Assembly (NCBI RefSeq): GCF_002008315.2
Contig: NZ_MVDG02000002.1
Span: 248,001 to 312,000, forward strand
DNA: 64,000 nt
Origin: Arthrobacter sp. KBS0703
GTDB taxonomy: Bacteria; Actinomycetota; Actinomycetes; Actinomycetales; Micrococcaceae
Direction of reading: 5' to 3'
The stretch's first letter is position 1. Every line of letters begins with the position of its first letter. The translations under genes were made by a program, and so were the position numbers. Shown piece by piece: positions 2,840 to 57,196 of the stretch. The notes under the pieces are model-generated. The model was not told where the DNA came from, made no database searches, and was given only the letters and a program-made list of their open reading frames with translations.

Positions 2840-2857
2840 CCGCCAACACCCGCAGGA

Positions 2858-2891
2858 ACGGACGACGCCGGGACCTCCCGCCGTCGTCCGT
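2858..2891. terminator. Bidirectional hairpin terminator after lysR
   Basis: Sixteen-bp arms with one mismatch and the same GGGACCTCCC apex as the hairpin at 18971-19004. It lies between the converging LysR gene and the gene at 2942. No T run follows. Confidence 0.55.
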
Positions 2892-2905
2892 TTGCGGCTA
2901 GCGCT

Positions 2906-2926
2906 GCTCCCCTACAGCGCCGACCA
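2906..2926 (-). pseudogene. Last codons of a lost SDR gene
   Basis: This 21-bp stretch is identical to 19019-19039, which holds the stop codon and last codons (WSAL-stop) of the SDR relic there. Both copies sit just beyond the same hairpin. The rest of the gene is absent at this locus, so it is read as a deletion scar. Confidence 0.4.
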
Positions 2927-2941
2927 CCGGATTCTCGGCGG

Positions 2942-3247: not shown

Positions 3248-3397
3248 CGTCGTTCCTTTCCCTCGGGCTATGGCAGGTCAAAGATAGGCCTTCCAGCGTC
3301 ATCCCGCTAGGGCCGAAGGGCGGTCTTGAACCGGTGCCGCGAGGTCATGCGGCCCCGGAAAATGCACTCGTTACGGGTTAGGCAATAGTCTGGCCAG

Positions 3398-18313: not shown

Positions 18314-18918
18314 TCAAACCTCCGCCACCGGAGCCGCGAACTGCGCCGCGTACAGCGCCGAGTACGCCCCACCCACCGCCAAGAGTTCAGCATGCGTCCC
18401 CTGCTCCACGATCTGCACGGCCTCCATCACCAGGATGAGGTCGGCGTCGCGGATCGTGGACAGCCGGTGCGCGATCACGAAGCACGTCCGGTCGGACCGC
18501 AAAGTACTCTTCGCCTTCTGCACCAGCACCTCGGTCCGCGTATCCACCGAGTTCGTCGCCTCGTCCAAAATCAAGACAGAGGGCCGGGCCAGGAACGCCC
18601 GGTCAATCGTCAGCAGCTGCTTCTCGCCGGCGGACACATTGGCGCCCTCGTCGTCGAGCACGGCGCCGTAGCCCTCCGGCAGAGTGCACAAACCGGTCCA
18701 CATACGCCGTCTTTGCTGCCTCCAGGATCTCCGCTTCGGTAGTCGAAGGCCGGCCGTACGCGATGTTGTCCCGGATGGCCCCCCGAACAGCCAGGAATCA
18801 TGCAGCACCATGCCCATCCGCAGCACAGCCCGCGCCGGGAGACGGTGGTGACCTCCACGCCGTCGAGCGTTATCCGCCCCGCATCCAGCTCATAGAACCT
18901 CATCATCAGGTTCACCAG
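18314..18918 (-). pseudogene. Truncated, frameshifted copy of an ABC exporter 3' end
   Basis: About 600 bp align with the 3' end of the intact exporter gene at 25273-27312, from its stop codon up to the region just after Walker A. Relative to that gene there are at least a 2-bp loss near 18683 (GGCAGAGTG versus GGCAGGGAGTG) and a 1-bp loss near 18780, so only short pieces such as [18 protein letters not shown] and LILDEATNSVDT remain readable. Similarity stops near 18918. It has no membrane domain and no start, so it is a dead partial duplicate. Confidence 0.88.
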
Positions 18919-18970
18919 CGTGACTCGTGGAGCCTATTCGAGGCGAGCACGGCTGTGCGCCGCGACGGTG

Positions 18971-24112: not shown

Positions 24113-25213
24113 TCACTGTCTCAGTACCTTTTCGGCCCGTTCCGCGAGGACGCCGATGGCCAGGGAGAAGCGGCCAGGTAGCGGAGAAAGTGCCAGACGG
24201 AGCCAGACGGCGTCCGAGTACGCATCGAACCGGTCCGGACTGACGCGCAGTTCCTCGGCGGTGGCCAGCACCTGCGTGTGAGCCGTCAGATATCGTTCGG
24301 GCGTCATGCGGTTGTTTCGTAGATGAAGCTCCAGACGGACGTCCAGGCCGGCCAGATCCCGGGCGGCCTCGTGCCGGGCCGTACTGTCGAAGTCCAGCAA
24401 CCCGGGCGGGATGTCGCCGTCGGAAACGATGATCTGCCTGTCGTAAAGGTCTCCGTGGGCCCACACCAGCGGATCCGGTGCCGTCCGGAGCAGGTTCACG
24501 GCCACATGCTCCGCAGCGGCGCGCAAGGCATCGCGCTGAGGCGAGAACTCCGGGGCGTTTTCATTGTGCCGCAGCCAGTCGTCCACCCGGCGACACATTT
24601 TCGTGGCTTCCCACTCCGGTGAACGGAGCGGAAGGCTGTCGAGAACGCTTTGCGCTGCGGGACCATGGGATCCGTTCAGTTCCGCGACCCAGGCCCGCGA
24701 CCATTTCTCCCACGCCCCGGCGAACGCTTCATCGCCGACGGCGGCGTCCTCCCGGCCCAGCTCGTTCAGAGTCTGTCCCGCGATGGCGCTAAATACGATG
24801 ACGTCCTCCTGGGAGCTCTGCCGGAGGATTCTGGGTGTTGTGAAGTTGCCGACGTCCAGTAGGACGTCCATCTGTGCGCAACGCTCGGCCGGCACGACGG
24901 CGCTGCCGCGCTTAAAGATCTTTATGTAGCGACCCTCCGCCCGGACGACCGCCTGGTGGTGGGGCCAGTACGAAATCAATTCACCCTGCTGTGCTTCCCG
25001 CCGCAAGGCGGGCAGTCCCGGATCGTCCAACGGGATAAGTTCGAACTGCCCGTGACGCAGGTGAGCTCCCCGGACTCCGGGCCGCCCCGGAGTCAGGACC
25101 TCCAGGACAAATTCTCCTGGTGTCTTGTCCGGCCATGCCCGCTGAATCAGCCAAGTTGTCCCCGTATCGTCGTCGGCTGACTCTGGAACGGGCGAGATGC
25201 TCCGTCCATCCAT
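24113..25213 (-). CDS. Aminoglycoside-phosphotransferase-fold kinase
   Basis: A 366-residue protein with an APH/choline-kinase fold. The catalytic loop is HGDLYDRQ and the metal-binding motif LLDFDS. The usual Asn five residues after the catalytic Asp is Gln, as in the two related kinases at 41113 and 42411. The N-terminal 90 residues (WLIQRAWP, YIKIFKRG) match those of the 42411 protein, so the two are full-length paralogues. The ATG follows GGGAGGAG. It stands alone between a surface-protein fragment and the ABC exporter. The substrate is unknown. Confidence 0.8.
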   Translation of the reverse strand: MDGRSISPVPESADDDTGTTWLIQRAWPDKTPGEFVLEVLTPGRPGVRGAHLRHGQFELIPLDDPGLPALRREAQQGELISYWPHHQAVVRAEGRYIKIFKRGSAVVPAERCAQMDVLLDVGNFTTPRILRQSSQEDVIVFSAIAGQTLNELGREDAAVGDEAFAGAWEKWSRAWVAELNGSHGPAAQSVLDSLPLRSPEWEATKMCRRVDDWLRHNENAPEFSPQRDALRAAAEHVAVNLLRTAPDPLVWAHGDLYDRQIIVSDGDIPPGLLDFDSTARHEAARDLAGLDVRLELHLRNNRMTPERYLTAHTQVLATAEELRVSPDRFDAYSDAVWLRLALSPLPGRFSLAIGVLAERAEKVLRQ

Positions 25214-25272
25214 GCTTTCTCCTCCCCGTAACCAGCCGCTCTCGCAACCCTCTGCTTTCGCGAGGACCGCCC

Positions 25273-27312
25273 TTAGACCTCCGCCACCGGAGCCGCGAAC
25301 TGCGCCGCGTACAGCGCCGAGTAAGCCCCGCCGGCCAACAACAGGGAAGCATGCGTGCCCTGCTCCACGATCTGGCCTGCCTCCATCACCAGGATGAGGT
25401 CGGCGTCGCGGATGGTGGACAGCCGGTGCGCGATCACGAAGCTCGTCCTATCCGAGCGCAAAGCGCTCATCGCCTTCTGCACCAGTACCTCGGTCCGCGT
25501 ATCCACGGAAGAAGTCGCCTCGTCCAGGATCAGCACCGACGGCCGGGCCAGGAACGCCCGCGCGATCGTCAGCAGCTGCTTCTCGCCGGCCGAAACGTTG
25601 GAACCCTCGTCTTCCAGCACGGTGTCGTACCCCTCCGGCAGGGAGTGCACGAACCGGTCCACATACGTCGCCTGCGCCGCCTCCAGAATCTCCGCCTCGG
25701 TGGCAGTGGGCCGGCCGTAGGCGATGTTGTCCCGGATCGTCCCGCCGAACAGCCACGTATCCTGCAGCACCATGCCCATCCGCGAGCGCAGCTCGTGCCG
25801 CGTCATCGCGGTGACGTCCACGCCGTCGAGCGTTATCCGCCCCGCATCCAGTTCATAGAACCTCATCATCAGGTTCACCAGGGTGGTCTTGCCCGCACCC
25901 GTCGGGCCCACGATCGCCACCGTCTGCCCCGGCTCCGCCACCAAAGAAAGGGAAGAGATCAGCGGCTTGTCCGGCGAATAGGAGAACGAGACGTCGCCGA
26001 ACACCAGCCTGCCCCGCCCGCCGTTCGGCGACTCAGCAGGCGCCGGATCCGGGCTCTGCTCGTCCGTGTCCAGCAGCTCGAACACCCGCTCCGCGGACGC
26101 CACGCCGGACTGCAGCAGGTTGGCCATGGACCCCAGCTGGGCCAGCGGCTGGGTGAACTGCCGCGAGTACTGGATGAACGCCTGCACGTCGCCCAGCTGC
26201 ATCGCCCCGGACGCCACCTGCAGCCCGCCCACCACGGCGATCCCCACGTACACCAGGTTCCCGATGAACGTCAGCGCCGGCATGATCAGGCCGCTGATGA
26301 ACTGTGCCCCGAAGCTCGCCGCGAACAGTTCACCGTTCTTCTCCCGGAACCGCTCCTCCACCTCCCGCTGCCGGCCGAACACCTTCACCAGCGCGTGCCC
26401 CGTGTACGTCTCCTCGATCTGCCCGTTCAGCTCTCCCGTGTGCTTCCATTGCGCCACGAACAGCTTCTGCGACCTCTTCGCGATCAGCGCCGTGGTCACC
26501 AGCGTCAGCGGCACCGTCACCAGCGCAATCAGCGCCAGCACCGGGGAGAGCAGGAACATCATCACCAGCACGCCCACCACGGTGAGCAACGACGTGACCG
26601 CCTGGGAGATCGACTGCTGCAGACTCTGCGAGATGTTGTCCACATCGTTCGTCACCCGGCTCAGCAGCTCGCCGCGCTGGATCGAATCGAAGTACCGCAG
26701 CGGCAGCCGGTGGATCTTCGCCTCGATCTGCTCGCGCAGCCGGTACACCGTCCGCTGCACCACGCCGTTGAGCACGTACGCCTGGATCCAGCCGAACGCC
26801 GACGCCAGCACATACAGCGCCAGCGCCCACAGCAGCACCGAGAGCAGCGCCGCGAAGTCGATTCCCGTCCCCGGCGTCAGCGTCATGGCGCCGATCATGT
26901 CCGCCTGTGAATCCTTGCCGGCCGCCCGCAGCCCCGCGATCACGTCCGCCTTGCTCACCCCGGCCGGCAGGTTCTTGGAGACCACGCCGGCGAAGATCAG
27001 GTTGGTGCCCTCCCCCAGCAGCCGCGGTCCGATCACCGAGAACGCCACGCTCGCCACGGCGAGCGCCAGGACCAGCACCAGCCACAGCCGCTCGGGCTGC
27101 AGCGTCCCCAGCAGCCGCCTGGCCGACGCCCCGAAGTTCATCGCCTTCTCCGCCGGCACATTCATCCCGGCGAACGGCCCTCCCCTGCCCGGCCCCATCG
27201 GAGGCCGCGGCGGGCCTGCTGGCCGTTCCGCGCTCCCCGCCGGACCCGCAGGACGTACGACGGCGGTGGGCCCGGTTTCCGGGGCCCGCCCGGTGCGGCT
27301 GGAGGTGCTCAT
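25273..27312 (-). CDS. Heterodimeric ABC exporter, subunit with canonical Walker B
   Basis: A 679-residue fused membrane/ATPase subunit of a multidrug-type exporter. A Pro/Gly-rich 60-residue N-terminal extension precedes the six-helix domain (about 70-390). The ATPase domain has Walker A GPTGAGKT, Walker B LILDEATSSVD with catalytic Glu, but a non-canonical signature VSAGEKQ. It overlaps the upstream partner gene by 4 bp. A decayed partial copy of its 3' end lies at 18314-18918. Confidence 0.92.
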   Translation of the reverse strand: MSTSSRTGRAPETGPTAVVRPAGPAGSAERPAGPPRPPMGPGRGGPFAGMNVPAEKAMNFGASARRLLGTLQPERLWLVLVLALAVASVAFSVIGPRLLGEGTNLIFAGVVSKNLPAGVSKADVIAGLRAAGKDSQADMIGAMTLTPGTGIDFAALLSVLLWALALYVLASAFGWIQAYVLNGVVQRTVYRLREQIEAKIHRLPLRYFDSIQRGELLSRVTNDVDNISQSLQQSISQAVTSLLTVVGVLVMMFLLSPVLALIALVTVPLTLVTTALIAKRSQKLFVAQWKHTGELNGQIEETYTGHALVKVFGRQREVEERFREKNGELFAASFGAQFISGLIMPALTFIGNLVYVGIAVVGGLQVASGAMQLGDVQAFIQYSRQFTQPLAQLGSMANLLQSGVASAERVFELLDTDEQSPDPAPAESPNGGRGRLVFGDVSFSYSPDKPLISSLSLVAEPGQTVAIVGPTGAGKTTLVNLMMRFYELDAGRITLDGVDVTAMTRHELRSRMGMVLQDTWLFGGTIRDNIAYGRPTATEAEILEAAQATYVDRFVHSLPEGYDTVLEDEGSNVSAGEKQLLTIARAFLARPSVLILDEATSSVDTRTEVLVQKAMSALRSDRTSFVIAHRLSTIRDADLILVMEAGQIVEQGTHASLLLAGGAYSALYAAQFAAPVAEV

Positions 27313-29066
27313 GCCGCCTCCTCCGCCGCCAGCTGCGAGGACACGATCTCCCGGTACGTCTCGGACGTCTCCAGCAACTCGCCGTGCGTTCCGCGCCCGA
27401 CGATCCTGCCGTCGTCGAGCACCAGGATCTGGTCCGCGTCGATGATGCTAGACACCCGCTGGGCGATGATCACCAGGGTGGCCCCGGAGGTGTCGTGCTT
27501 GAGCGCCTGGCGGAGCCGGGCGTCCGTGGCGGTGTCCAGCGACGAAAACGAGTCGTCGAAGATGTACAGTTCCGGCCGCTTCACCAGCGCCCGGGCAATG
27601 GCCAGCCGCTGCCGCTGGCCGCCGGACAAGTTGGTGCCGCCCTGCGAGATGGGCGCATCCAGGCCGCCCTCCATCTCCCGGACGAAGTCCTGCGCCTGGG
27701 CCGTGGCCAGCGCACCCCAGAGTTCGTCCTCCGTGGCGTCCGGCTTACCGTACAGCAGGTTGCTGCGAACCGTGCCGGAGAACAGGTACGGCCGCTGCGG
27801 CACCAGCCCGATGTGCCCCCACAGCAGGTCCGGGTGCAGCTCGCGCACGTCCACCCCGCCCATGAGCACCGTGCCGCCGCTCGCATCGAAGAGCCGGGGC
27901 ATCAGGTTCACCAGCGTGGTTTTCCCCGACCCCGTGCTGCCGATGATCGCCGTCGTCCGCCCCGCGCGGGCGGTGAAGGTGATGTTGCTGAGGACGGGCT
28001 GCTGGGCGCCGGGGTACGCAAAGCGGACGCCGCGCATCTCCAGCTCGCCGGTGCCGACGGCGCCCGGCCCGCCGCCCGCGCCGGCAAAGCCAAGCGGGCG
28101 GGCCGGCGGGCGCACGGACGATTCCGTCTCCAGCACCTCGCCGATCCGGTCCGCGGAAACGGCGGCGCGCGGGATCATCACGGCCATGAACGTGGCCATC
28201 ATGACGGACATCAGGATCTGCAGCAGGTAGCTGAGGAACGCGATGAGGGTGCCCACCTGCATGGAGCCGTCCTCAATCCGGAACGCGCCGAACCAGATCA
28301 CCGCCACGCTGGAGACGTTCAGCACCAGCATCACCACCGGGAAGGCGAGCGCCATCAGCCGGCCCGCGCGCAGGGCGGTCTCCGTGACGTCCGCGTTGGC
28401 CTGCGCGAAGCGGTCGGTCTCCAGATCCTCCCGCACGAACGCCCGCACCACGCGGATGCCGGCCAGCTGCTCGCGGAGCACGCGGTTGACGGTGTCGATC
28501 CGGACCTGCATGCTGCGGAACAGCGGCACCATCCGGCTGACGATGAAGCCGACGCCGATCAGCAGCACGGGCACGCTGACGGCGATCAGCCAGGACAGCT
28601 GCGCGTCCTGCCGGACGGCCATGATCACGCCGCCGATGCTGAGCATGGGCGCGGCCACCATGAGCGTGGCGGACATCAGCACCAGCTGCTGGACCTGCTG
28701 GACGTCGTTGGTGGAGCGGGTGATGAGGCTCGGGGCGCCGAACCGGGTGACTTCCTGCTCGGAGAACTCGCCCACCCGGGTGAAGATGGCCCCGCGCAGG
28801 TCCCGCCCCATGCCCATCGCGGCCTTCGCCCCGAAGTACACGGCGGTGACGGCGCAGGCGATCTGCAGCAGCGTGATGAACAGCATGAGGCTGCCCACCC
28901 GCAGGATGTACCCGGTGTCCCCCTTCGCCACGCCTTCGTCGATGATGTCCGCGTTCAGCGTGGGCAGGTACAGCGAGGCGATGGACTGCGCCAGCTGGAA
29001 AACCACGACGGCGATCAGCAGCCGCCGCTGCGGCCGCAGGTATTCAACGAGCAGCTTCCAGAGCAT
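27309..29066 (-). CDS. Heterodimeric ABC exporter, subunit with degenerate Walker B
   Basis: A 585-residue ABC exporter half. Six transmembrane helices occupy about 1-320. The ATPase domain has Walker A GSTGSGKT and canonical LSGGQRQR, but Walker B reads YIFDDSFSS with Asp in place of the catalytic Glu. Combined with the partner's altered signature this yields one canonical and one degenerate ATP site, as in TM287/288-type exporters. First gene of the two-gene operon. Substrate unknown; drug or lipid export is typical. Confidence 0.92.
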   Translation of the reverse strand: MLWKLLVEYLRPQRRLLIAVVVFQLAQSIASLYLPTLNADIIDEGVAKGDTGYILRVGSLMLFITLLQIACAVTAVYFGAKAAMGMGRDLRGAIFTRVGEFSEQEVTRFGAPSLITRSTNDVQQVQQLVLMSATLMVAAPMLSIGGVIMAVRQDAQLSWLIAVSVPVLLIGVGFIVSRMVPLFRSMQVRIDTVNRVLREQLAGIRVVRAFVREDLETDRFAQANADVTETALRAGRLMALAFPVVMLVLNVSSVAVIWFGAFRIEDGSMQVGTLIAFLSYLLQILMSVMMATFMAVMIPRAAVSADRIGEVLETESSVRPPARPLGFAGAGGGPGAVGTGELEMRGVRFAYPGAQQPVLSNITFTARAGRTTAIIGSTGSGKTTLVNLMPRLFDASGGTVLMGGVDVRELHPDLLWGHIGLVPQRPYLFSGTVRSNLLYGKPDATEDELWGALATAQAQDFVREMEGGLDAPISQGGTNLSGGQRQRLAIARALVKRPELYIFDDSFSSLDTATDARLRQALKHDTSGATLVIIAQRVSSIIDADQILVLDDGRIVGRGTHGELLETSETYREIVSSQLAAEEAA

Positions 29067-35563: not shown

Positions 35564-36790
35564 ATGGGGCCCACCTTGGAACACATACGAATTGTTCTTT
35601 ATTCACACGACTCCCTCGGTCTGGGGCACGTGCGCCGCAATCTGGCCCTCGCCCATGCCCTGACCAACCAACTTCCCGGACTGATCGGGCGTGAGGTGAC
35701 CGGGGTCCTGGTTTCCGGCACGACGCTCGCCCCGGGATTCGAGCTTCCCCCCGCCTGGGACTGGGTGATCCTGCCGGGCGTGGAAAAGGGCCGCGGCGGC
35801 TACCGTCCCAGGAGCCTCGACGTTCCCATGCCGGACCTGGTGTCACTGCGGGCTTCCCTGCTGGAATCGGTCCTGGGCAGTTTCCGCCCCGATCTGGTGG
35901 TGGTGGACCGGCATGCGACCGGGATTCACCGCGAACTGGAAGTGGCCCTGCGCCGGGCCCGCGCCGCCGGGCCGGTGCGGATGGTGCTGGGCCTGCGCGA
36001 AGTCCTGGATTCGCCGGAAGCGGCCATTGCAGAGTGGGACCGCGAGGGCGGCGAAGGGCTCGTGACATCCCTGTTTGACGCCATCTGGGTTTACGGCGAT
36101 CCTGCCGTCCACGATCCGGTTGCCGCGGGCGAAATTCCGCACTCCTTCCGCAAACTGATCCACTACACCGGATATCTGGCGGCCGGGCGGCCGCAGGGTT
36201 CCGGGCAGCTGAGCATGCGGCGCCCCTACTTCATGACGACGGTGGGCGGCGGCGCCGACGGCCACGCCCTGGCGAAAATGGCGTCCGACGCCGCCCTGCC
36301 GCCGGGAGTGGGCCACCTGATCGTGGCCGGGCCACAAATGCCGGCGCAACAGCTCAACGACCTCCGGCTGCGCGCCAAGGCGGGCTTCAAAATCGTGGAC
36401 ACCCTGGACGACATGGTGCTCCACATGCGGCGCGCCGAGGCAATCGTTTCCATGGGCGGCTACAACACGGTCTGCGAGATCCTGGCAACCAGGGTCCCGG
36501 CGCTCGTTGTGCCGCGGACCGAGTCACGCTCCGAGCAGCGGATCCGCGCCGAATCCCTCGCCGCCGCGGGCTACCTGGAACACCGCGACATCGGCATGCT
36601 GACGCCCGCCGTCCTCGCCGACTGGCTCGTCAAGCAGCTCGGCACCAAGGTGGACCGCCGGCGAGCACAGCTCAACGGACTGGTCCGGGTGCCCCAGCTG
36701 GCCGCCGGCCTCCTGCTGCCCGTGCTGGAATCCATTGGCACCCGTCCGCTGGACCATATCCGGGAGGGCGCCGCGCATGTTGCCATCTGA
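35564..36790 (+). CDS. COG4671-like predicted glycosyltransferase (GT28-type fold)
   Basis: A 408-residue GT-B glycosyltransferase. The N-terminus IVLYSHDSLGLGHVRRNLALA is the hallmark of the COG4671 predicted glycosyltransferases, and the C-terminal half has MGGYNTVCEILATRVPALVVPR, the donor-binding loop shared with MurG/GT28. ATG 35564 is preferred over in-frame 35519. The next gene starts 14 bp inside its end. First gene of the cluster; acceptor and donor unknown, though UDP-sugars are plausible given the terminal ugd gene. Confidence 0.85.
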   Translation: MGPTLEHIRIVLYSHDSLGLGHVRRNLALAHALTNQLPGLIGREVTGVLVSGTTLAPGFELPPAWDWVILPGVEKGRGGYRPRSLDVPMPDLVSLRASLLESVLGSFRPDLVVVDRHATGIHRELEVALRRARAAGPVRMVLGLREVLDSPEAAIAEWDREGGEGLVTSLFDAIWVYGDPAVHDPVAAGEIPHSFRKLIHYTGYLAAGRPQGSGQLSMRRPYFMTTVGGGADGHALAKMASDAALPPGVGHLIVAGPQMPAQQLNDLRLRAKAGFKIVDTLDDMVLHMRRAEAIVSMGGYNTVCEILATRVPALVVPRTESRSEQRIRAESLAAAGYLEHRDIGMLTPAVLADWLVKQLGTKVDRRRAQLNGLVRVPQLAAGLLLPVLESIGTRPLDHIREGAAHVAI

Positions 36791-37994
36791 ACCGGGCACC
36801 GCCTACATCCTGAAAATGTACCCGCGGTTCTCCGAGACGTTCATCGTCTCCGAGATCCTGGCGCGCGAGGCCGCCGGGGACAGGATTGAGATCTTCTCAC
36901 TCCGTCCGCCCAACGACCCCCGGTTCCATCCTGAACTGGCACGCGTCAAGGCGCCGGTGACGTACATCGCCCGGCCGAAGAGCGCCGAGCGCGTGTGGGA
37001 GACGTTCCGTGCCGCTGAAGCCGCCGGCCTCGCCCCGGCGGTGTCACGGGTTTTCACGGAACTGGCCACCATGGACACGAATGATGCGCTCCAGGCCATC
37101 AACCTCGCCGTCGCCCTGCAGAACCGCAACATCAGGCACCTGCACGTTCACTTCGCGTCGATCCCCACGACCGTTGCGAGGCTCGCCTCGGCCATCACCG
37201 GCATTCCCTATTCCTTCACGGCCCACGCCGTGGACATCTTTGTTGAGACCGCCGACGACGATCTCCGGACCAAGTTTGCCCAGGCCCACCATGCGGTGAC
37301 CATCAGCGCCTACAACCTGCGGTTCCTGCGCCGCCGCTTCCCGGACGTCACCTCCCGCCTGCACCTGGTGCGCAACGGCCTGGAGCTCGACCGCTTTCCG
37401 TACCGCGACCCCCGGCCCATCGGTGCCACGGTGCGCGTGGCCGCCGTCGGACGGCTCGTGGAAAAGAAGGGGTTCCAGCACCTTGTGCCGGCCGCCGCCG
37501 AGCTCGTGGCCCAAGGCGTCCCCCTGGACCTGAGAATCGCCGGAACAGGAGTGCTGGCCGCACAACTGCAGTCCGCCGTCGAACAGCTGGGACTGGCGGA
37601 CCACGTCAGGCTGCTGGGGCCGCAGACCCAGGACCAGGTCCATGAGCTGCTGGATTCCAGCGACGTCTTCATTGCTCCCTGCGTGGTGGCGGCGGACGGC
37701 AACGCAGACGGCATGCCCACGGTGCTACTGGAGGCCATGGCCACCGGCGCTCCGTGCATCTCCACCGCGGTCACCGGGATTCCCGAGGTGGTGCACAACG
37801 GGCGCACGGGAATCCTGACCAGGCCCGGCGATCCGCACGTCCTCGCCCAGGCCATCCGCCGCATCAGTGCGCCGTCAACGGACAGGGCGTCCCTGGCGCG
37901 CAATGCCCGCGCCCTGATCGAACGGGACTACGACGTGCGGCACCAGGCGGAGATGCTCCGCGCCCTGTCGCTCGAGGCAAGGAAGGTGGCGTGA
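36777..37994 (+). CDS. GT4-family glycosyltransferase
   Basis: A 405-residue GT-B enzyme. It begins YILKMYPRFSETFIVSEILA, typical of colanic/exopolysaccharide GT4 proteins, has a LHVHFASIPTTVARL segment and ends with the donor site DGMPTVLLEAMATGAPCIST and VTGIPEVVHNGRTGIL. It overlaps the preceding gene by 14 bp and the next by 1 bp (TGATG), so expression is coupled. Confidence 0.9.
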   Translation: MLPSEPGTAYILKMYPRFSETFIVSEILAREAAGDRIEIFSLRPPNDPRFHPELARVKAPVTYIARPKSAERVWETFRAAEAAGLAPAVSRVFTELATMDTNDALQAINLAVALQNRNIRHLHVHFASIPTTVARLASAITGIPYSFTAHAVDIFVETADDDLRTKFAQAHHAVTISAYNLRFLRRRFPDVTSRLHLVRNGLELDRFPYRDPRPIGATVRVAAVGRLVEKKGFQHLVPAAAELVAQGVPLDLRIAGTGVLAAQLQSAVEQLGLADHVRLLGPQTQDQVHELLDSSDVFIAPCVVAADGNADGMPTVLLEAMATGAPCISTAVTGIPEVVHNGRTGILTRPGDPHVLAQAIRRISAPSTDRASLARNARALIERDYDVRHQAEMLRALSLEARKVA

Positions 37995-39210
37995 TGCGCG
38001 TCGCCTACATATGCGCCGATCCCGGCGTCCCCGTCTTCGGCACCAAAGGATCCTCCGTCCATGTCCAGGAGATGGTGCGCGCCTGGCGCAGGGCCGGGGC
38101 CGACGTCACGGTGTACTGCGTCCGCGCCGGAAACGACAAGCCGGCCGACCTCGGCGGGCTCGACGTCGTCGAGCGGCCGCCCCGCAAGGCAGAGCCTGCC
38201 GGGCGGGAGCGCGCGGTCGAAGAGGCGGCGTACTCGCTCGGTGACACTGCCCTGCGCGACGGCTGCGACGTGGCCTACGAACGTTATTCGCTGTTCAGCC
38301 CTGCTCTGTCCTTGGTGGCCGGCACGCTGGGGGTCCCGGCCGTCCTGGAGGTCAACGCTCCGCTGATCGAGGAGCAGCAGCGGTACCGCCAGCTTTTTGA
38401 TGTTGGCCTCGCCGAGTCGATGCTCCGCCGGAACGCCCTGGCTGCCGACGCCGTGGCCTGCGTCTCGGAGCCCGTGCTCCGGTGGGTGAAGCAACGTGTT
38501 CCCGAGGCCAGGACCGTGCTGGCGCCGAACGGCGTCAACACCGACCGGATCACCGCCCGGCCGTGGGAGCGGCCGGGCGGGCGCCCCGGGCGGCCTGGTT
38601 CCGGGCGTTTCGTGGTGGCGTTCACCGGCACCCTCAAGCCGTGGCACGGCGTCCCGGACCTGCTCGAGGCGGTGGCCCGGGCCAACGCTGACCCGGACAG
38701 AGCGGGCCTGTGGACGGTACGGATCATCGGCGACGGGCCGGGCCGGCCGGACCTCGAACGGCTCGCCGCCCGGCTGGGCGTGGAGGCCGAGTTCACAGGA
38801 GCGGTGCTGCCAGAGTCCGTGCCGCGCCTGCTGCACGAGTGCGACGCCGCCGCGGCACCGTATCCGCAGCCGGAGCCGGGCCAGGACCACTACTTTTCGC
38901 CGCTGAAGGTATACGAATACCTGGCAGCGGGCATGCCGGTGATCGCCACGGCCGTGGGCCAGATTCCCGCCGTCATCGAGCACGGCCGCACCGGGCTAAT
39001 GGTCGCCGCCGGCGATCCGGCGGCGTTCGCCGCCGCCCTGAAACGTCTGGCGTCAGACGCCGCGCTCCGGGAACGGCTGGGCACCCAGGCCCGGGCCGCC
39101 GCCTGTCTCTTATACACATCTAGATGTGTATAAGAGACAGCAGCTGGGACGGCGTGCTTTCGCTGATCACCGCGGCGCTGGCATCCCGGCAGGAGGTGGC
39201 CCGATCATGA
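37994..39210 (+). CDS. GT4-family glycosyltransferase, interrupted by adapter sequence
   Basis: GT4 enzyme of about 390 residues once corrected: start MRVAYICADPGVPVFGTKGS, then VLEVNAPLIEEQ, a Rossmann segment VAFTGTLKPWHGVPDLLEA and donor site FSPLKVYEYLAAGMPVIATAVGQ. At 39103-39140 a 38-bp palindrome of two mosaic ends breaks the frame. Removing exactly 38 bp rejoins RAAA to SWDGVLSLITAALAS and the natural stop at 39208-39210, so the gene is probably intact in the organism, apart from any in-frame loss at the junction. The stop overlaps the next start (ATGA). Confidence 0.88.
39103..39140. other. Nextera/Tn5 mosaic-end palindrome (assembly artefact)
   Basis: CTGTCTCTTATACACATCT (39103-39121) followed by its reverse complement (39122-39140). 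This is the engineered mosaic end used in tagmentation libraries, not the natural IS50 outer or inner end. It marks an artificial contig join. Confidence 0.95.
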
Positions 39211-41116
39211 CCGCGCACGCCCACCGAGCGCAGCCGTCAGGGCAGCAAGAGGCCGTCGCGCGGAAGCCGTGGCGGCCGCCCCGACTCGGGCGGAACCCCT
39301 CCCGGCCGCCCAAGCCGGAGTCCGGGCTTCGGCGCACACTGCGCTGCGTGCGCCCGCATCTCCAGGGCCACCGCCTCCTCATGGTGGGCGGATTCGCCGG
39401 CTTGGCATTCGACGTCGCTTTCCGCCTGGTGGAACCGTGGCCCCTCAAGCTGGTGGTGGACGCCGTGTCCCGCTCGCTGGGCGCCACGCTGCACAGACCC
39501 GGTCCCACCCTGGACGCTAGTGTGCAGACCCTCATCCTGTGCGGGGCAGCGGTGGTGGCCATCAGCATCGGGCGCGCCATCTCCAATTACTGGTCCTCCA
39601 TCTGCTTCGCCCTCATCGGGTCAAGGGTCGCTGCGGACCTGAGGGCGCGGGCCTTCCGCCACGTGCAGAGCCTGTCCATGCGCCACCACACGAAGGCGTC
39701 CACCGGGGACACCGTGCAGCGCCTGGTAGGCGATGTGTCCCGGCTGCAGGACGTGGCAATCACCGCAGGGCTCCCGCTCATGGGCAACATGGCCACCCTG
39801 GTGGCGATGATCGGCATCCTGCTCTGGCTGGATCCCCTGCTTTCTTTGGTGGTGATTGTGGCCGGCGGGGTCTTCGTCCTCCTATCCCGCGCCAGTTCAG
39901 GCCCGATCACGGCGGCGGCCGGCAACTCCCGCAAGGGCGAGGGTCACCTGGCCACGACGGCGGCGCAGACTTTGGGAGCCATCCGGGAGGTCCAGGCCTA
40001 CGGCCTGGAGGACACCATCAGTTCCGGCTTCCGCAGCAGCAACCAGGCCACCCTGGGAACGGGCGTTGCGGCGCTGCGGCTGGCCGCCGGCCTTGAGCGG
40101 CGCACCGACGTGCTGCTGTCTCTGCGACGGCGGTTGTGCTGGCTGGCGGCGGCTGGCGGGCCATGGAGCACGTGATCACGCCGGGTGACCTGGTGATCTT
40201 CCTGATGTACCTCAAGACGGGCATGAAACCCCTGAAGGACGTGGCGAAACAGATTGGCCGGCTCGCCCGGGCCACGGCCTCCGGCGAGCGCGTGGCGGAC
40301 CTGCTGGAAGCCCAGACGGACCTGCCCGAATCCGCCCATGCCCGCCGACTGGACAGCAAGAACCCGGACATCGTGATGGATGACGTATACGCGGGCCACG
40401 GCGAAGGAATGGTGCTGCACGGGATCAACCTGACCATTCCGGCCGGCGAGCATCTGGCCATCCTGGGCCCGTCCGGCGCCGGAAAGTCCACGCTGGCCAG
40501 CCTCATCCTGCGCATGATCGATCCCGCCACCGGATCGGTCAGGGTGGGCGGTGAGGACCTGCGGGACCTCAAGATCGCGTCCGTGCGGTCGCATGTGTCC
40601 ATCCTGCTGCAGGACTCCGTGCTGTTCGGCACTTCCGTCCGGGACAACATCCGGTTCGGCCGGCTCGACGCCACGGACCAGGAAATCGAGGAGGCTGCTG
40701 CCCTGGCCCAGGCCGACACCTTCATCCGAACCCTTCCGGACGGCTACGACACGGTGCTGGGCGAAGCGGCGAAGGACCTCTCCGGCGGCCAGCGGCAGCG
40801 GATCGCGATTGCCCGCGCCATCCTCAGGCGGGCGCCGATCGTCATCCTCGACGAGGCGACGGCCGGCCTGGACGCAGCTTCCCGGGATTCCGTACTGCAG
40901 GCCCTCGCCGCCCTGACGCGCGAACGGACCTCCATCACCATCACCCACGATGTCCACTCCGCCCGTTCGTGCGACCGCATCGTCTGGCTCGAAAACGGCA
41001 GGATCGTGGAGGAGGGACGCCCGGAAGTGCTGCTGCGGGATCCCGGAACCCGGTTCGCCCGCTGGATGGATGACGAGGACCCCAGCCGGCCCGAAGAGAA
41101 GCTGGAAGTGCCATGA
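39207..41116 (+). CDS. ABC exporter (fused membrane and ATPase domains), one frameshift
   Basis: About 635 residues when corrected. A Pro/Arg-rich N-terminal tail precedes a six-helix exporter domain (about 50-340). The ATPase has Walker A GPSGAGKS, signature LSGGQRQR and Walker B VILDEATAGLD, all canonical, so it can act as a homodimer. The frame is lost near 40124: DVLLSL is followed, one frame over, by ATAVVLAGGGWRAMEHV; a single missing G explains it. It sits between glycosyltransferases and kinases and probably exports the cluster's glycan or glycoconjugate. Its start overlaps the preceding stop. Confidence 0.85.
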
Positions 41117-42414
41117 CCGGTGCGCAGGCCTCGTTCAAAAATCCGGACTGCTCCCTGGCCAGCCGCGATGATGCGCTGCCCGGCCTGCCCTACCTGCTGG
41201 ACAGTTCCCGGCTGTCTTCGCTGCTCGGCGAAACCGTCCGCGTCACGCGGGTCCGCTACAAGCCGCGCACCTCGTTGCTGGTGGCATTCCGCCGTATCCG
41301 CAACGGTGCCTTCGACTACGGCTGGGCTATGACCCGGACGCGCGCCGGCAACGCCAAGCTCCTTCGGCGCGAGCTCACCTCCCGGTCCCGCGGTGGAGAC
41401 ATCCGGGTCCTGCGGCCCGATCCGCGGCAGGACGACAACCTGGTGGCGGTGGGCGGCGTCGAGGACGACTGGGTTCTCTACGGGAACCTGCTCTGGCTGC
41501 GCGAACACGGCATGGAACGGCTCGGCCTCCCGCAACAGCCCGGCAGCGTGCTGGCCGGCACAGGCAGCGTGCTGCGGTACAAGCCTGAACGCCGCCTAGT
41601 CCTCTTCGTCCAGAACTCCGGTGCCCCGGTGGTCATCAAGGCCGCCGCAACGCCGGCCGGGCGCCGAGCAGCAGGCCCATTTCCTGGAGCGGCTGAACCT
41701 GCACGGGGTTCCGCACCTCCCCCAACTGGGGACGCCGAATGCCTCGAGCACGGCATCAGCGCCTGCGCGGCCTGGGGCGGCGGCGACCTTGCCGGGCTCG
41801 ACGACGACTCCGGAGCCGTCAGCGCGGGGGAAGCCCTGGCCAGGCTACACGGCATCCCCCCTCGGCGGTTTCCCGGCGGGGCCGGACGTCTGGCGGGACG
41901 ACATCGCCGCGCAGCTGCAGGCAACGCGGTCCATGGTTGCGTCCCTGCTCCCCGCACTGGAGGAACCGGCCCGGCGGGTCGAAGCCGAGCTGCGCGCCCG
42001 GCTGCTGAAGGACGGCGCCGCGTCCGAGTACGTCCTGGTGCACGGCGACTTCTCCGCGGACCAGGTGCTGGTGGGAGGTTCGGAGGTGCGACTCATCGAT
42101 TTTGACCGGGCGCGCATCGGCGCGGCCGAGGCCGACCTGGGATCGTTCGCTGCGGCGGAGGAAGCGGTGCGCGCCGCCGCCTCCAGGGAACCCGCCGGGC
42201 CGCCCGGCGCGCTAGGGGCGCCGGGGGTCCGAAGACCGCCCGGCTCAGCGAGGGCTACGCCGCGGCGGGCGGCCGGTTCACCGAGGCGGGCTTGGACGCC
42301 TGGGCAGCCTTCCGGCTCTTCAACAGCAGCGTTGACCCCTTCCGGGACCGGTCCCCGGAATGGGCCGCCGACATGTCCTGGCACCTGCGCCGGGCCGAGG
42401 AGCTGATCTCATGA
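41113..42414 (+). CDS. APH-fold kinase with four compensating frameshifts
   Basis: A phosphotransferase of about 430 residues. The N-terminal half reads well (VRVTRVRYKPRTSLLVAFRR), then the frame shifts +1 near 41651-41668, back at GGGG 41728-41731, +1 at the C6 run 41856-41861 and back at the G5 run 42223-42227. Reading across them gives one continuous kinase with catalytic loop VHGDFSADQ and metal site LIDFDRARIG. The balanced changes argue for sequencing errors. The start overlaps the ABC gene (ATGA) and the end overlaps the next kinase. Substrate unknown. Confidence 0.75.
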
Positions 42415-43598
42415 ACTGGCATCCTCCCGTACCGCGCCGCGTCACCGACCCCGCAGGAAATGAGTGGCTGGTGGGCCGCGCGTGGCCCGGCGTCTCGGCA
42501 GGCCGGTATGTCCTCGAGGTTCACTCACCCGGCTATCCCGGGGTGCTGGGCGGGTTCTTCCGCGAAGGCCGGTTTGTCCCGGTGTCCGCGGACGACTCCA
42601 AGCTGCCCGCCCTCGCACGGGAGTCGCCCAAGGGCGAAACAGTGGTCCACCGCGCCCACAAGCGTGCAGTCCTCCGTGCCGGCGACACGTACATCAAGGT
42701 GTTCCGGCCTGAACAGGCGCCTGCGGCGGCCACAAATCACGTGTTGGCCACGGCACCCCTGGCCGGCGGCCGCTTCAGGACACCGGTCATGACCGCAACC
42801 CGGCCGGACGTCCTGGCGTTCAGCCGCGTGGCCGGCCGGTCCTACTACGAGCTCGGCCAGGACCAGGCCACCGTCAGTGACGGCTTCTTTGCCGGCATGT
42901 GGGGTGGCTGGTCGCGGGCGTGGACGGAAACTGTTGCCCGCGCCAACAGCTCCGCTTTCCGCGGCAATCTGGAGCAGCTTCCGCTGCGCGATGCCGAAGA
43001 AGAACTGGCCAAAGTGCGGCGGTGGATGGATCGCTGGCTGCTCCACAGCGAAGGGATCCCCGAGGCCGCACCGGGACGCGCTGCACTCATGGCACAGGTC
43101 GATGCCGTAAAGGCCGGTCTTTTGGCCGGGCCCCCCGATCCCCTCGGGTGGTCGCACGGAGACCTGCACGACAAGCAAATACTGGGCACGGATAGCGCCG
43201 GAATGGGCATCGACAACACCGGAGCGCCGGGCCTGCTGGACTTCGATGAAGCGTGCAGGGCCGAGGCCGCCCTGGACCTGGCGAACCTGGACGTGCACCT
43301 GGAACTGCGGCGGAGGCAGAACCTGCTTACAGCACGGCGGTTTGCGGCGGCCCACGCGAGTATCGTGTCCGCGGCAAGCCGCCTGCACGTCAGCCCGGAA
43401 CGGTTCGAGGCGTATGCCGCCTCCGCGCGGCTCCGGCTGGCCTGCATTTACTCCTTCCGCCCGCCGTGGGGATCCTGGGCGGTGAGATACCTGACATCCA
43501 TGGACCTGGTTTCGCCGGAGCTGCGCCGATCCCCCGGACGCCGAGCAGCCGGGCGCGAACCTGTCCCGCTCTTGAGCACAGAACGAAGCCTGACATGA
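42411..43598 (+). CDS. APH-fold kinase of the glycan cluster
   Basis: A 395-residue intact kinase. N-terminal domain WLVGRAWPGVSAGRYVLEV, nucleotide-lobe YIKVFRPEQ, catalytic loop SHGDLHDKQ and metal site LLDFDEACRAEAALDLANLD. As in the neighbour, Gln replaces the Asn metal ligand. It is a full-length paralogue of the lone kinase at 24113-25213. Overlaps of 4 bp on both sides place it in one transcript with the glycosyltransferases. It may phosphorylate a sugar or glycolipid intermediate; antibiotic resistance is less likely here. Confidence 0.85.
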   Translation: MNWHPPVPRRVTDPAGNEWLVGRAWPGVSAGRYVLEVHSPGYPGVLGGFFREGRFVPVSADDSKLPALARESPKGETVVHRAHKRAVLRAGDTYIKVFRPEQAPAAATNHVLATAPLAGGRFRTPVMTATRPDVLAFSRVAGRSYYELGQDQATVSDGFFAGMWGGWSRAWTETVARANSSAFRGNLEQLPLRDAEEELAKVRRWMDRWLLHSEGIPEAAPGRAALMAQVDAVKAGLLAGPPDPLGWSHGDLHDKQILGTDSAGMGIDNTGAPGLLDFDEACRAEAALDLANLDVHLELRRRQNLLTARRFAAAHASIVSAASRLHVSPERFEAYAASARLRLACIYSFRPPWGSWAVRYLTSMDLVSPELRRSPGRRAAGREPVPLLSTERSLT

Positions 43599-45208
43599 GC
43601 AATTCCGCATGGGGAGATTACGTCGCCCCGTCCGTCCCGCCGTCGTCCGTTCCCCCCGCCCCTGCTGACGTGACCGCCACCGCCGCCGGCCCGTCCGGAA
43701 ACGGCAGCGGGCCGTCAGGGAACGGTACCGGCCCGTCCGCAAACGGGGCCCATCCGTCCTCCAACGGCAGCGGGCCGTCAGGGAATGGTACCGGGCCCGC
43801 GGGAAACGGCACGGCCCCCGCCGGCCTTTCCCTGTCCGTCATCGGGACCGGGTATCTGGGCACCACGCATGCCGTGTGCATGGCGCTCCTGGGCCACCGT
43901 GTGGTGGGAATCGACGTCGACGAGGCCAAGGTCGCGGCGCTTTCGCGCGGCAAGCCGCCGTTTTTCGAACCGGGCCTCAAGAAGCTCCTGCGGATCATGC
44001 TGGAAAGCGGCAGGCTGACGTTTACCAGCGATTTCTCCGCGGCCCGCGGCGCCGACATTCACTTCGTGTGCGTCGGCACCCCGCAGGAGGCAGACTCCCC
44101 GGCGGCCGACCTCCGCTTCGTGGACGCGGCGCTCGCCCGGCTGGCCCCGCACCTGGACCGGCACTGCCTGGTCGCGGGAAAGTCCACCGTCCCGATCGGC
44201 ACGGCGGAACGGCTCACGGAGTTCGTCCGCGCCAGCTCCCCCGCGGGCAGGCTCGCGGAGCTGGCCTGGAACCCGGAGTTCCTGCGCGAAGGGCATGCGG
44301 TGGAGGACACCCTGCACCCGGACCGGCTGGTGTTCGGTGTTGCATCCGAGTGGGCACGGGACCGGCTCGCGGTCTGCTACGCGCCGATCATCGCGCAGGA
44401 GACTCCGGTGGTGGTCACGGACCTCGCCACGGCCGAGCTGGTCAAGGCCGCCGCAAATTCCTTCCTGGCCACCAAGATCTCCTACATCAACGCGATGGCG
44501 GAGGTGTGCGAGGCGACGGGCGCCGACGTCAACGACCTGGCCAGGGCGCTCTCCTACGACACCCGCATCGGCGGCCGGTTCCTCAAGCCGGGCCTGGGCT
44601 TCGGCGGCGGCTGCCTCCCGAAGGACATCCGCGCCTTCACCCACCGGGCCAGGGAACTCGGCGTCGGGCAGGCTGTGGGGTTCCTGCGGGAGGTGGATGC
44701 CATCAACCAGCGGCGGCGCCAGCGCACGGTGGATCTCATCACCGAGATGGCCTGCGGGGACCTGGCCGGCGTGCGGGTCACCGTCCTGGGCGCCGCCTTC
44801 AAGCCCGACTCGGACGACATCCGCGACGCTCCCGCCCTGGATGTTGCCCGCATGCTCCATCAGGCCGGGGCCAGGGTGACCGTGTACGACCCCAAGGCCA
44901 TGGACAACGCCCGCCGGAGCTACCCGGACCTGGCCTATGCCGGCTCGCTGGAGGCCGCTGTGACGGGCGCCGAGATCGTGGCGCTCCTGACGGAATGGGA
45001 CGTGTTCCGGCGTGCCGATCCGGCCGCGCTGGGCGAACTGGTGCAGCTGCGGAACATCGTGGACGGCCGGCACGCGCTGGACGCCGACGCCTACCGGGCC
45101 GCCGGCTGGGACTACCGCGCCCTCGGAGCTCCCACCCGCCTGCCGGCGCGGACGCAGGCATCCCGGCGGCTTGAACCGGCGCCAAGGGACGCGTCACTGG
45201 GTGTTTAG
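43595..45208 (+). CDS. ugd: UDP-glucose 6-dehydrogenase with Gly-Asn-Gly-rich N-terminus
   Basis: A 537-residue dehydrogenase making UDP-glucuronate. The NAD fold starts only at residue 84 (IGTGYLG); the first 76 residues are a low-complexity GPSGNG-type linker encoded by repeated DNA. Catalytic Cys340 lies in GGGCLPKD, and KSTVPIGTAE, WNPEFLREGHAVED and LGAAFKPDSDDIRDAPALD are all present. It ends the cluster and could supply uronic acid to its glycosyltransferases. The GNG extension is absent from ordinary family members and is likely disordered. Confidence 0.93.
   Translation: MSNSAWGDYVAPSVPPSSVPPAPADVTATAAGPSGNGSGPSGNGTGPSANGAHPSSNGSGPSGNGTGPAGNGTAPAGLSLSVIGTGYLGTTHAVCMALLGHRVVGIDVDEAKVAALSRGKPPFFEPGLKKLLRIMLESGRLTFTSDFSAARGADIHFVCVGTPQEADSPAADLRFVDAALARLAPHLDRHCLVAGKSTVPIGTAERLTEFVRASSPAGRLAELAWNPEFLREGHAVEDTLHPDRLVFGVASEWARDRLAVCYAPIIAQETPVVVTDLATAELVKAAANSFLATKISYINAMAEVCEATGADVNDLARALSYDTRIGGRFLKPGLGFGGGCLPKDIRAFTHRARELGVGQAVGFLREVDAINQRRRQRTVDLITEMACGDLAGVRVTVLGAAFKPDSDDIRDAPALDVARMLHQAGARVTVYDPKAMDNARRSYPDLAYAGSLEAAVTGAEIVALLTEWDVFRRADPAALGELVQLRNIVDGRHALDADAYRAAGWDYRALGAPTRLPARTQASRRLEPAPRDASLGV
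43688..43822 (+). repeat. GPSGNG-encoding imperfect repeats in ugd
   Basis: Several imperfect direct repeats of about 24 bp encode GPSGNGSG / GPSGNGTG units at ugd residues 32-76. Confidence 0.75.
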
Positions 45209-53918: not shown

Positions 53919-55136
53919 ATGCGCATTGTGATCGCGCCGGACAAGTTCAAGGGCTCGCTCTCCGCCCCGGACGTCGCCCGGCACCTTGAGGAGGGGCTGC
54001 ACGCCGGCTTCCGCACCGCGGGGCCGGGCCCCCTTGAGGTCCTGCGGATTCCCGTGGCCGACGGCGGTGAAGGCACCCTGGATGCCGCCGTCGGCTCCGG
54101 CTTCACCCGCCGCAGCGCCGTGGTCAGCGGCCCCACCGGGCGGCCGCTGACGGCGGAGTTTGCGGTCCGCGGGCGGGAGGCGGTCATTGAGATGGCCGCG
54201 GCCTCCGGGCTCGCGGTCCTGCCCGGCGCCGGCGGGACCGGCGGACCGGACTCCGCTACCGCGAAGGCGGCCACGAGCCTGGGCACCGGCGAACTGATCC
54301 GGGCCGCGCTCGACGCCGGCTGCCGGCAGATCATCCTGGGCGTCGGCGGCAGTGCCAACACCGACGGCGGCGCGGGAGTCCTGCAGGGCCTCGGCGCCAT
54401 CCTGTTCGACGCCGCCGGCAACGAACTGCCGCCCGGCGGCGCCGCCCTGGCCGACCTGGCCAGCATCGACTTCTCCGGCTTCGACTCCCGCCTGGACGAG
54501 ACCCGTTTCATCCTCGCTAGCGACGTCGACAACCCGCTGCTCGGCCCCGAAGGCGCCGCCGCCATCTTCGGCCCGCAGAAGGGCGCCACCCCGGCGGACG
54601 TGGCAGCCCTGGACGGCGCTTTGGCCAACTTCGTGCACGTCCTCGCGGACGAAATCGGGCCGCGGGCACTGAGAGCCGCGGACGCTCCCGGCGCGGGAGC
54701 CGCCGGCGGCGTCGGTTTCGCAGCCATCGCCGTACTGGCCGCGACCCGCCGTCCGGGCATCGACGTCGTGCTGGAATTCACCGAGCTGGCGGACCGGCTG
54801 GCCGGCGCCGACCTGGTGATCACCGGCGAAGGCAGCCTCGACGAGCAGAGCCTGCTGGGCAAGACGCCCATGGGCGTGGCCCGCGCGGCGGCGCTGGCCG
54901 GGGTCGCCGTGATGGCCGTCTGCGGCCGCACCACGCTCACGCCCGAACAGCAAAAGATGTGTATAAGAGACAGGGTCTACCCGCTGACCGCGCTGGAGGC
55001 CAAGGTAGATATATGTATAGCCGAAGCGGCGTCCCTGCTTGAACAACTGGGAAAGAACATCGGCCTGGAGCTGGCGGAGACGGCCAACGCCGCCCCAGCC
55101 AACAGTGCCCGCACAAAGGAGCCCCTGAATGTCTGA
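53919..55136 (+). CDS. glxK: Glycerate kinase, carrying an internal adapter sequence
   Basis: A glycerate 2-kinase-type enzyme (GlxK/GarK family, normally about 380 residues). It begins [20 protein letters not shown] and has [45 protein letters not shown] and [17 protein letters not shown]. Within TTLTPEQQ...VYPLTALEA a 19-bp mosaic end (54955-54973) encodes MCIRDR; the frame is kept but native codons there are lost. Just downstream, five codons in a row end in A or T. Its end overlaps allB by 8 bp. Confidence 0.9.
54955..54973 (+). other. Single Nextera/Tn5 mosaic end inside glxK (assembly artefact)
   Basis: AGATGTGTATAAGAGACAG, one 19-bp mosaic end without its mirror copy. It replaces a short piece of glxK. 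Confidence 0.93.
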
Positions 55137-56885: not shown

Positions 56886-56923
56886 CTGTCTCTTATACAC
56901 ATCTAGATGTGTATAAGAGACAG
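56886..56923. other. Nextera/Tn5 mosaic-end palindrome (assembly artefact)
   Basis: Two inverted 19-bp mosaic ends, 56886-56904 and 56905-56923. Excision rejoins the winged-helix gene in frame. Confidence 0.95.
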
Positions 56924-57158: not shown

Positions 57159-57196
57159 CTGTCTCTTATACACATCTAGATGTGTATAAGAGACAG
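57159..57196. other. Nextera/Tn5 mosaic-end palindrome (assembly artefact)
   Basis: Two inverted 19-bp mosaic ends, 57159-57177 and 57178-57196. Excision alone does not restore the frame, so native bases are missing at this join. Confidence 0.95.

What the first reader, a model, noticed from the sequence alone, without database searches (positions are those of the whole stretch)
35564..45208. Uncharacterised glycan/glycoconjugate cluster with two kinases
Three glycosyltransferases (COG4671-like, two GT4), a homodimer-type ABC exporter, two APH-fold kinases and UDP-glucose dehydrogenase overlap by 1-14 bp along 9.6 kb, implying one polycistron. There is no Wzx/Wzy, ligase or polymerase. A pathway in which sugar or lipid intermediates are phosphorylated before ABC export does not match a textbook capsule or teichoic acid system and is the best candidate here for something undescribed.
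Basis: partly seen in the sequence, partly recalled or inferred. Interest (0 to 1): 0.75.

Follow-up and report, generated by a model that had tools for sequence, protein, structure and literature searches.

The report
Kinase-coupled glycan export gene cluster
A set of six or seven neighbouring genes, found in the same order in very different bacteria, looks like a machine that builds a sugar chain, phosphorylates it and pumps it out of the cell; the copy read here is damaged in the assembly, but intact copies elsewhere suggest a real system for which we found no description.

Summary
The gene set is real: a GT28-type glycosyltransferase, two GT4s, an MsbA-type ABC exporter, two APH-fold kinases and UDP-glucose dehydrogenase, with junction overlaps of 14,1,4,4,4,4 nt. 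The order GT28-GT4-GT4-ABC-APH1-APH2 is complete in 63 of 80 named loci. It recurs on E. coli plasmids, there with an alginate-export-family porin and UGDH, and in Paracoccus with the kinases fused. Of 49 database proteins found with an exporter-fused APH1, 43 are exporter-APH1 fusions, 4 double kinases, 1 GT4-APH1. A two-component pair adjoins 40 of 80 loci. Best explanation: an acidic glycan is built, phosphorylated and exported, phosphorylation being coupled to export, as with WbdD-type terminators but with an MsbA-type exporter. Product, kinase substrates and timing are inferred. Ten searches of an open-licence library listed no description. New variant of a known kind.

The parts
35564..36790 (+). 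GT28-type glycosyltransferase (408 aa), intact
   Evidence: PF04101 E 5.8e-9; 63-75% identical in eight same-genus loci, 89-90% in L055/L056
36777..37994 (+). GT4a glycosyltransferase (405 aa), intact; overlaps GT28 by 14 nt
   Evidence: PF00534, and NCBIfam EPS_EpsE 197 bits, below its cut-off of 400; 65-84% in eight same-genus loci, 93-94% in L055/L056
37994..39210 (+). GT4b glycosyltransferase, interrupted by the adapter pair
   Evidence: PF13692, PF13439; relatives L055/L056 match 37991-39106 and then 39130-39201 in another frame
39103..39140 (.). two head-to-head 19-base synthetic adapter words (assembly artefact)
   Evidence: 342 forward and 339 reverse copies in the genome, reversed-word control 0 and 0
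39207..41116 (+). MsbA-type ABC exporter, one gene in relatives, split between frames near 40124-40166 here
   Evidence: PF00664 in one ORF and PF00005 in the next; single ORF in eight same-genus loci; break located
41113..42414 (+). APH1 kinase gene, frame-broken (within 41660-41880 and near 42226)
   Evidence: PF01636 only in the second-frame ORF; breaks against L055/L056; single ORF in eight same-genus loci
42411..43598 (+). APH2 kinase (395 aa), intact
43595..45208 (+). UDP-glucose 6-dehydrogenase (537 aa, with a low-complexity N-terminal stretch), intact
   Evidence: PF03721/00984/03720, NCBIfam TIGR03026 411 bits over its cut-off 189.8; 90-91% in L055/L056
24113..25213 (-). third APH-type kinase, next to a pair of ABC exporter genes; its relatives lie inside the cluster, between APH1 and APH2, in five of eight same-genus loci

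Best explanation
The cluster encodes assembly and export of a phosphorylated, probably uronic-acid-containing glycan. UGDH supplies UDP-glucuronate. The GT28 enzyme and two GT4 enzymes build a short glycan on the cytoplasmic face, free or on a carrier. APH1 and APH2 phosphorylate the glycan or its carrier at, or just before, the transporter. The MsbA-type exporter moves it out; in the E. coli plasmid version an alginate-export-family porin could take it across the outer membrane. A neighbouring two-component system probably controls many copies. Shown: gene set, order, coupling in the window, kinase active-site residues, fusions of APH1 to exporter, second kinase or GT4, and the neighbours. 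Inferred: the product, the kinase substrates, the order of steps, the regulation.
For: Six-gene order complete in 63 of 80 loci. Same set on E. coli plasmids with PF13372 porin and UGDH and in Paracoccus. Of 49 proteins found with the APH1 part of L149, 43 are exporter-APH1, 4 double kinases, 1 GT4b-APH1, 1 exporter alone. APH1-APH2 fusions in L104, L119, L130, L158, L167. Catalytic H, D and D-x-D residues kept in APH1 and APH2. UGDH in 21 of 80 loci. Exporter family of MsbA, ChvA and others by profile scores, all below cut-off.
Against: No product, substrate or phenotype is known. UGDH lies in only 21 of 80 loci, so uronic acid may not be general. The porin was seen only on E. coli plasmids; none is annotated near the Paracoccus copy. 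Fold matches do not tell the kinase substrate, and top rows include peptide-, choline- and antibiotic-acting kinases. MsbA-type exporters carry many substrates. The 80 loci are the best 80 of 454 and are related; in other classes three fetched loci are rearranged (L151, L152, L157).
Confidence: 0.5

Rival explanations
1. Glycolipid pathway: the GTs glycosylate a membrane lipid, the kinases phosphorylate lipid or sugar, and the exporter flips the glycolipid to the outer leaflet, where it stays.
For: The exporter scores with MsbA-type profiles, and MsbA is a lipid flippase (recalled); no polymerase or chain-length protein was matched in the cluster.
Against: An alginate-export-family porin in the E. 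coli version points to a product that leaves the membrane.
Confidence: 0.2
2. Precursor supply: the kinases make sugar phosphates (as maltokinase or glucosamine kinase do) for donor synthesis and do not touch the glycan.
For: Maltokinase and glucosamine kinase are among the sequence and fold matches; the APH1 loop HGDFSADQ resembles that of glucosamine kinase (PMC6520443, passages).
Against: The published glucosamine-kinase signature is absent in 36 of 36 APH1 and 36 of 36 APH2 sequences, and the sugar-contacting His of D-x-H is absent in 36 of 36 APH1. Fusion to the exporter fits a supply role poorly. No nucleotidyltransferase family was matched in the cluster.
Confidence: 0.12
3. The kinases are regulators: they phosphorylate the exporter or the GTs and control export.
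For: Fusion of APH1 to the exporter (43 of 49 proteins) and once to a GT4 would also fit self-regulation; APH2 loops often read HRD.
Against: Nearest structural matches are mostly small-molecule kinases.
Confidence: 0.09
4. A natural-product or peptide modification and export locus (LxmK-like kinase, GTs, exporter), or a resistance locus, and not a glycan system.
Against: E. coli APH1 scores 37 bits against the LxmK cut-off of 315; window APH ORFs match no NCBIfam model. UGDH and porin fit a glycan. Small precursor genes were not searched for.
Confidence: 0.05
5. In this strain the cluster is a decayed pseudogene set.
For: Besides the adapter, the exporter and APH1 carry several frame breaks.
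Against: The adapter word is synthetic, with about 340 sites in this assembly. The breaks lie within about 3.1 kb that starts at it. GT28, GT4a, APH2 and UGDH are intact, and the two nearest relatives are intact.
Confidence: 0.2

Closest known systems
WbdD of E. coli O9a and ORF6 of K. pneumoniae O7 (kinase-terminated, ABC transporter-dependent O-polysaccharide)
   Same: A kinase phosphorylates a glycan in a pathway with cytoplasmic assembly and ABC export; the O7 kinase domain resembles amicoumacin kinase (PMC3482155 abstract; PMC11231755 passages), and amicoumacin kinase is also among the fold matches of APH1 and APH2
   Different: There a methyltransferase accompanies the kinase; none was matched here. 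Exporter here is ABC_membrane plus ABC_tran in one chain; kinases are separate or fused to the exporter
msbA2 operon of Sinorhizobium meliloti (SMb21188-SMb21191)
   Same: Glycosyltransferases with an MsbA-type exporter of an unknown polysaccharide; loss of the exporter is harmful only when the upstream GT genes are intact (PMC12239276 and PMC3687685, passages)
   Different: Only the exporter is similar (about 27-31%); GT28, GT4a, GT4b, APH1, APH2 and UGDH profiles find nothing in that stretch
Rhizobial, Azospirillum and Sulfitobacter loci with GT28 and GT4 genes
   Same: GT28 and GT4a homologues side by side; nucleotide sugar dehydrogenase nearby in S. fredii, S. meliloti, R. etli and Sulfitobacter
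   Different: No APH1/APH2 match in the four searched (L159, L160, L161, L163); Azospirillum and Sulfitobacter have a histidine phosphatase, another GT and a polysaccharide deacetylase instead
Maltokinase and actinobacterial glucosamine kinase
   Same: Weak sequence and clear fold similarity of APH1 and APH2
   Different: Signature motif absent in all 36 plus 36 sequences tested

Membership tests
Conserved GT28-GT4-GT4-ABC-APH1-APH2 cluster (unnamed, defined here) | The six genes in this order on one strand | tested here: met
   window order by Pfam and by comparison with L055/L056; 63 of 80 loci complete
Conserved GT28-GT4-GT4-ABC-APH1-APH2 cluster (unnamed, defined here) | All six genes intact | tested here: not met
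   GT4b, exporter and APH1 are broken in this assembly
Wzm/Wzt-type ABC-dependent O-antigen or capsule pathway | Separate permease and ATPase of the ABC-2 type | tested here: not met
   Exporter is ABC_membrane (PF00664) plus ABC_tran, in one chain in relatives and E. coli
WbdD-type terminator | Kinase together with a methyltransferase | tested here: not met
   No methyltransferase family matched by the scanned cluster ORFs
WbdD-type terminator | Phosphorylates the non-reducing end of the glycan | not testable with these tools
   needs biochemistry
Wzx/Wzy-dependent pathway | Wzx flippase and Wzy polymerase in the locus | tested here: not met
   none matched by the scanned cluster ORFs; rest of genome not searched
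Actinobacterial glucosamine kinase | Signature Q-x2-RE-x2-YA-x3-LP-x-W | tested here: not met
   0 of 36 APH1 and 0 of 36 APH2; signature from PMC6520443 passages
Actinobacterial glucosamine kinase | D-x-H in the catalytic loop | tested here: inconclusive
   0 of 36 APH1, 35 of 36 APH2
APH-fold kinases (PF01636) | Fold and catalytic Asp with D-x-D | tested here: met
Class V lanthipeptide kinase LxmK | NCBIfam NF038156 above its cut-off | tested here: not met
   E. coli APH1 37 bits against 315; the window's APH ORFs match no NCBIfam model
S. meliloti msbA2 operon | Homologous glycosyltransferases next to the exporter | tested here: not met
   only the exporter is similar

The most novel reading that the evidence does not exclude
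A phosphorylation-gated glycan exporter: an APH-fold kinase docked on, or fused to, an MsbA-type exporter phosphorylates the finished glycan or its carrier as an export tag, and a second kinase adds another phosphate or sets chain length. The module has spread between Gram-positive and Gram-negative bacteria, partly on plasmids. This would be a new class of kinase-coupled ABC exporter.
Probability: 0.27. Interest if true: 0.85.

Novelty: new variant of a known kind. Interest (0 to 1): 0.6.

Why it matters
A six-gene order kept from Arthrobacter, Microbacterium, Brevibacterium, Rothia and Corynebacterium to Rhodobacterales and E. coli plasmids, with a kinase repeatedly fused to the exporter, points to a general way of phosphorylating and exporting a glycan that, as far as we found, has no name. 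It would make many proteins now called aminoglycoside phosphotransferase glycan enzymes and not resistance genes. It gives a direct test of whether phosphorylation licenses export by an MsbA-type transporter.

Tried and rejected
S. meliloti msbA2 as the same system: rejected, only generic exporter similarity. Glucosamine-kinase membership: rejected on the signature motif. LxmK membership: rejected by cut-off. A natural insertion at 39.1 kb: rejected, the 19-mer occurs 342 and 339 times on the two strands of this genome, with 0 for the reversed word; that it is the Nextera mate-pair junction adapter is recalled, from no call. No tRNA was found in the window and no Rfam family reached its gathering score, so an RNA element was not pursued.

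Own errors. In some searches my window queries for GT4a, the exporter's N-terminal part and APH2 began one base off, out of frame; their identities in those calls are invalid and were replaced. In some searches I took L167 12455-14785 for a possible two-component pair; it is AzlC plus an ORF without a match, and a protein with a histidine-kinase ATPase domain lies at 2058-3647 (its regulator was not checked). groups flanking ORFs by single linkage and holds many false frames of GC-rich DNA; I used it only to spot the two-component pair and recounted from two Pfam-checked seeds. I made no background control for that rate.

Incomplete or contrary rows. 17 of 80 loci are not complete: nine have under 5 kb after GT28 (L076, L084, L100, L106, L109, L115, L117, L126, L127); L104, L119 and L130 are kinase fusions; L064, L065, L067, L072 and L080 lack one or more genes by my profiles and were not resolved. 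The 80 are the best 80 of 454, so biased to near relatives. In the phylum sample 38 of 396 genomes matched at 1e-10, but by my reading of the listing only 18 score 187 bits or more; the others are partial matches. Of 13 places fetched there, L145, L146, L148, L154 and L156 are cut by contig ends, and L151, L152 and L157 have a changed order. Three of 48 fused kinases lack the catalytic motif as I wrote it. A plain Foldseek search was not run; only the VIA second look was used, so absent families are not excluded.

Paper searches: aimed at the cluster, at analogues. None listed a paper on this cluster. Searches returned 0 papers and one, because many terms were required; only open-licence papers are held.
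Full report
What is in the sequence. The + strand from 35564 to 45208 encodes, in order, a GT28-type glycosyltransferase, two GT4-type glycosyltransferases, an ABC exporter, two APH-type kinases and UDP-glucose dehydrogenase.

At 39103-39140 lie two head-to-head copies of a 19-base word. The genome has 342 forward and 339 reverse exact copies, the reversed control word none. I recall it as the junction adapter of Nextera mate-pair libraries. It interrupts GT4b near its end. The exporter changes frame near 40124-40166, and APH1 changes frame at least twice, within 41660-41880 and near 42226. Two relatives about 90% identical, Arthrobacter sp. ISL-5 (L055) and Soil736 (L056), have these genes open and no adapter; among the loci held at that point the word was seen only in this genome. 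GT28, GT4a, APH2 and UGDH are intact here. Assembly damage is the likelier cause; real decay is not excluded without reads.

Conservation. Eight of 48 same-genus genomes of the first sample match APH2 strongly and hold the cluster; five of the eight have a further kinase between APH1 and APH2. Of 454 confirmed relatives of the GT28 protein in named genomes, the best 80 were fetched. With profiles from intact Arthrobacter proteins, 63 of 80 have all six genes on one strand in the same order, 20 of them with UGDH in the locus. They include Microbacterium, Rathayibacter, Cryobacterium, Brevibacterium, Rothia, Tessaracoccus, Arachnia, Actinomyces, Corynebacterium and Janibacter (titles). GT28 matches at E 1e-40 or better: 31 of 198 genomes of the genus, 53 of 297 of the order, in 22 of 94 genera. 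The cluster is patchy but widespread. In other classes of the phylum (13 places fetched) the order is kept in several, five are cut by contig ends, and L151, L152 and L157 are rearranged.

Beyond Actinomycetota. The GT28 protein matches 275 plasmid records. The E. coli plasmid p1RM9088 carries GT28, GT4, GT4, ABC, APH, APH, an alginate-export-family porin (PF13372) and a nucleotide sugar dehydrogenase in one run. Identity to an Arthrobacter set is 33-40% for the first four, 27% for APH1, and 26% over part of APH2. The stretch is in 18 of 5,426 E. coli genomes, each time on a plasmid. Paracoccus aestuarii has a response regulator and sensor kinase facing GT28, GT4, GT4, ABC and one 740-residue protein with two APH stretches. 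Pseudorhodobacter has the same set with a fused kinase and a histidine-kinase-like protein upstream. Rhizobial loci, with Azospirillum and Sulfitobacter, share GT28 and GT4 genes; in the four searched no APH1 or APH2 was matched.

Fusions. APH1-APH2 (double kinase) fusions occur in Kocuria (L104), Brachybacterium (L119), Brevibacterium casei (L130), Paracoccus (L158) and Pseudorhodobacter (L167). Exporter-APH1 fusions occur in L147 and L149; L147 lies on a contig of the same length as one named Euzebya tangerina. A database search with the APH1 part of L149, where candidates had to be of similar total length, found 49 proteins. By my profiles 43 are exporter-APH1 (one was first labelled exporter-APH1-APH2 through a short overlapping hit), 4 are double kinases, 1 is GT4b-APH1 and 1 is an exporter alone. 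The length rule favours fusions, so these numbers show that fusions exist and recur, not how common they are. The catalytic motif is present in 45 of 48 fused kinases. This is the strongest evidence that the kinase works with the exporter and the glycosyltransferases.

Neighbours. A histidine kinase of one family is found in 44 of 80 loci, an OmpR-type regulator in 41, and an adjacent same-strand pair in 40. UGDH is in 21 of 80; five loci have both. No background rate was measured and the loci are related, so this is descriptive. None of the window ORFs scanned with Pfam matched a histidine kinase or response regulator; not every ORF was scanned.

Mechanism. The best reading is an acidic glycan built by three glycosyltransferases, phosphorylated by the kinases and exported by the MsbA-type transporter. 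[quoted passage not shown] K. pneumoniae O7 ORF6 does so with a kinase domain that resembles amicoumacin kinase (PMC11231755, passages). Here no methyltransferase was matched in the cluster and the exporter is of another type, to which the kinase can be fused. Whether the phosphate is an export tag, a chain stop or a decoration, or whether the kinases act on proteins, is open.

Novelty. Ten searches of the open-licence library listed no description of the cluster. The nearest genetic analogue found, the S. meliloti msbA2 operon, exports an unknown polysaccharide, and its loss is harmful only when the upstream glycosyltransferase genes are intact (PMC12239276, passages), but its glycosyltransferases are not homologous. 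I rate the cluster a new variant of a known kind: ABC-exporter-dependent glycan export, with kinases tied to the exporter.

Noticed in passing
window 39103-39140, 54955-54973, 56886-56923, 57159-57196; whole genome G000: Synthetic adapter words left all over this assembly: 342 forward and 339 reverse copies. Other genes of this genome are probably interrupted too.
   Followed up: partly
window 24113-29066, - strand: A second exporter-plus-kinase operon: two ABC exporter genes (25273-27312, 27309-29066) followed by an APH-type kinase (24113-25213); kept in L034, 87-93% identical.
   Followed up: partly
window 18317-18933, - strand: A partial stretch 72-75% identical to the C-terminal part of the 25273-27312 exporter gene, perhaps a truncated or frame-broken copy.
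   Followed up: no
L162 (E. coli plasmid p1RM9088): The glycan cluster lies next to K88-type fimbria genes and an S6-family peptidase gene on large plasmids; in 18 of 5426 E. coli genomes, many of them from cattle.
   Followed up: no
L160, L164, L165, L166: Azospirillum and Sulfitobacter loci with GT28, GT4, GT4, histidine phosphatase, GT and polysaccharide deacetylase: a related glycan locus with a phosphatase where the other has kinases.
   Followed up: no
L084: A contig titled Vibrio cholerae strain 35D carries the GT28-GT4-GT4 part, 51% identical to Arthrobacter; probably contamination by an actinobacterium (inference).
   Followed up: no
P0151: A GT4b-APH1 fusion protein named alpha-maltose-1-phosphate synthase by its source; its kinase lacks the catalytic motif as I wrote it.
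   Followed up: no
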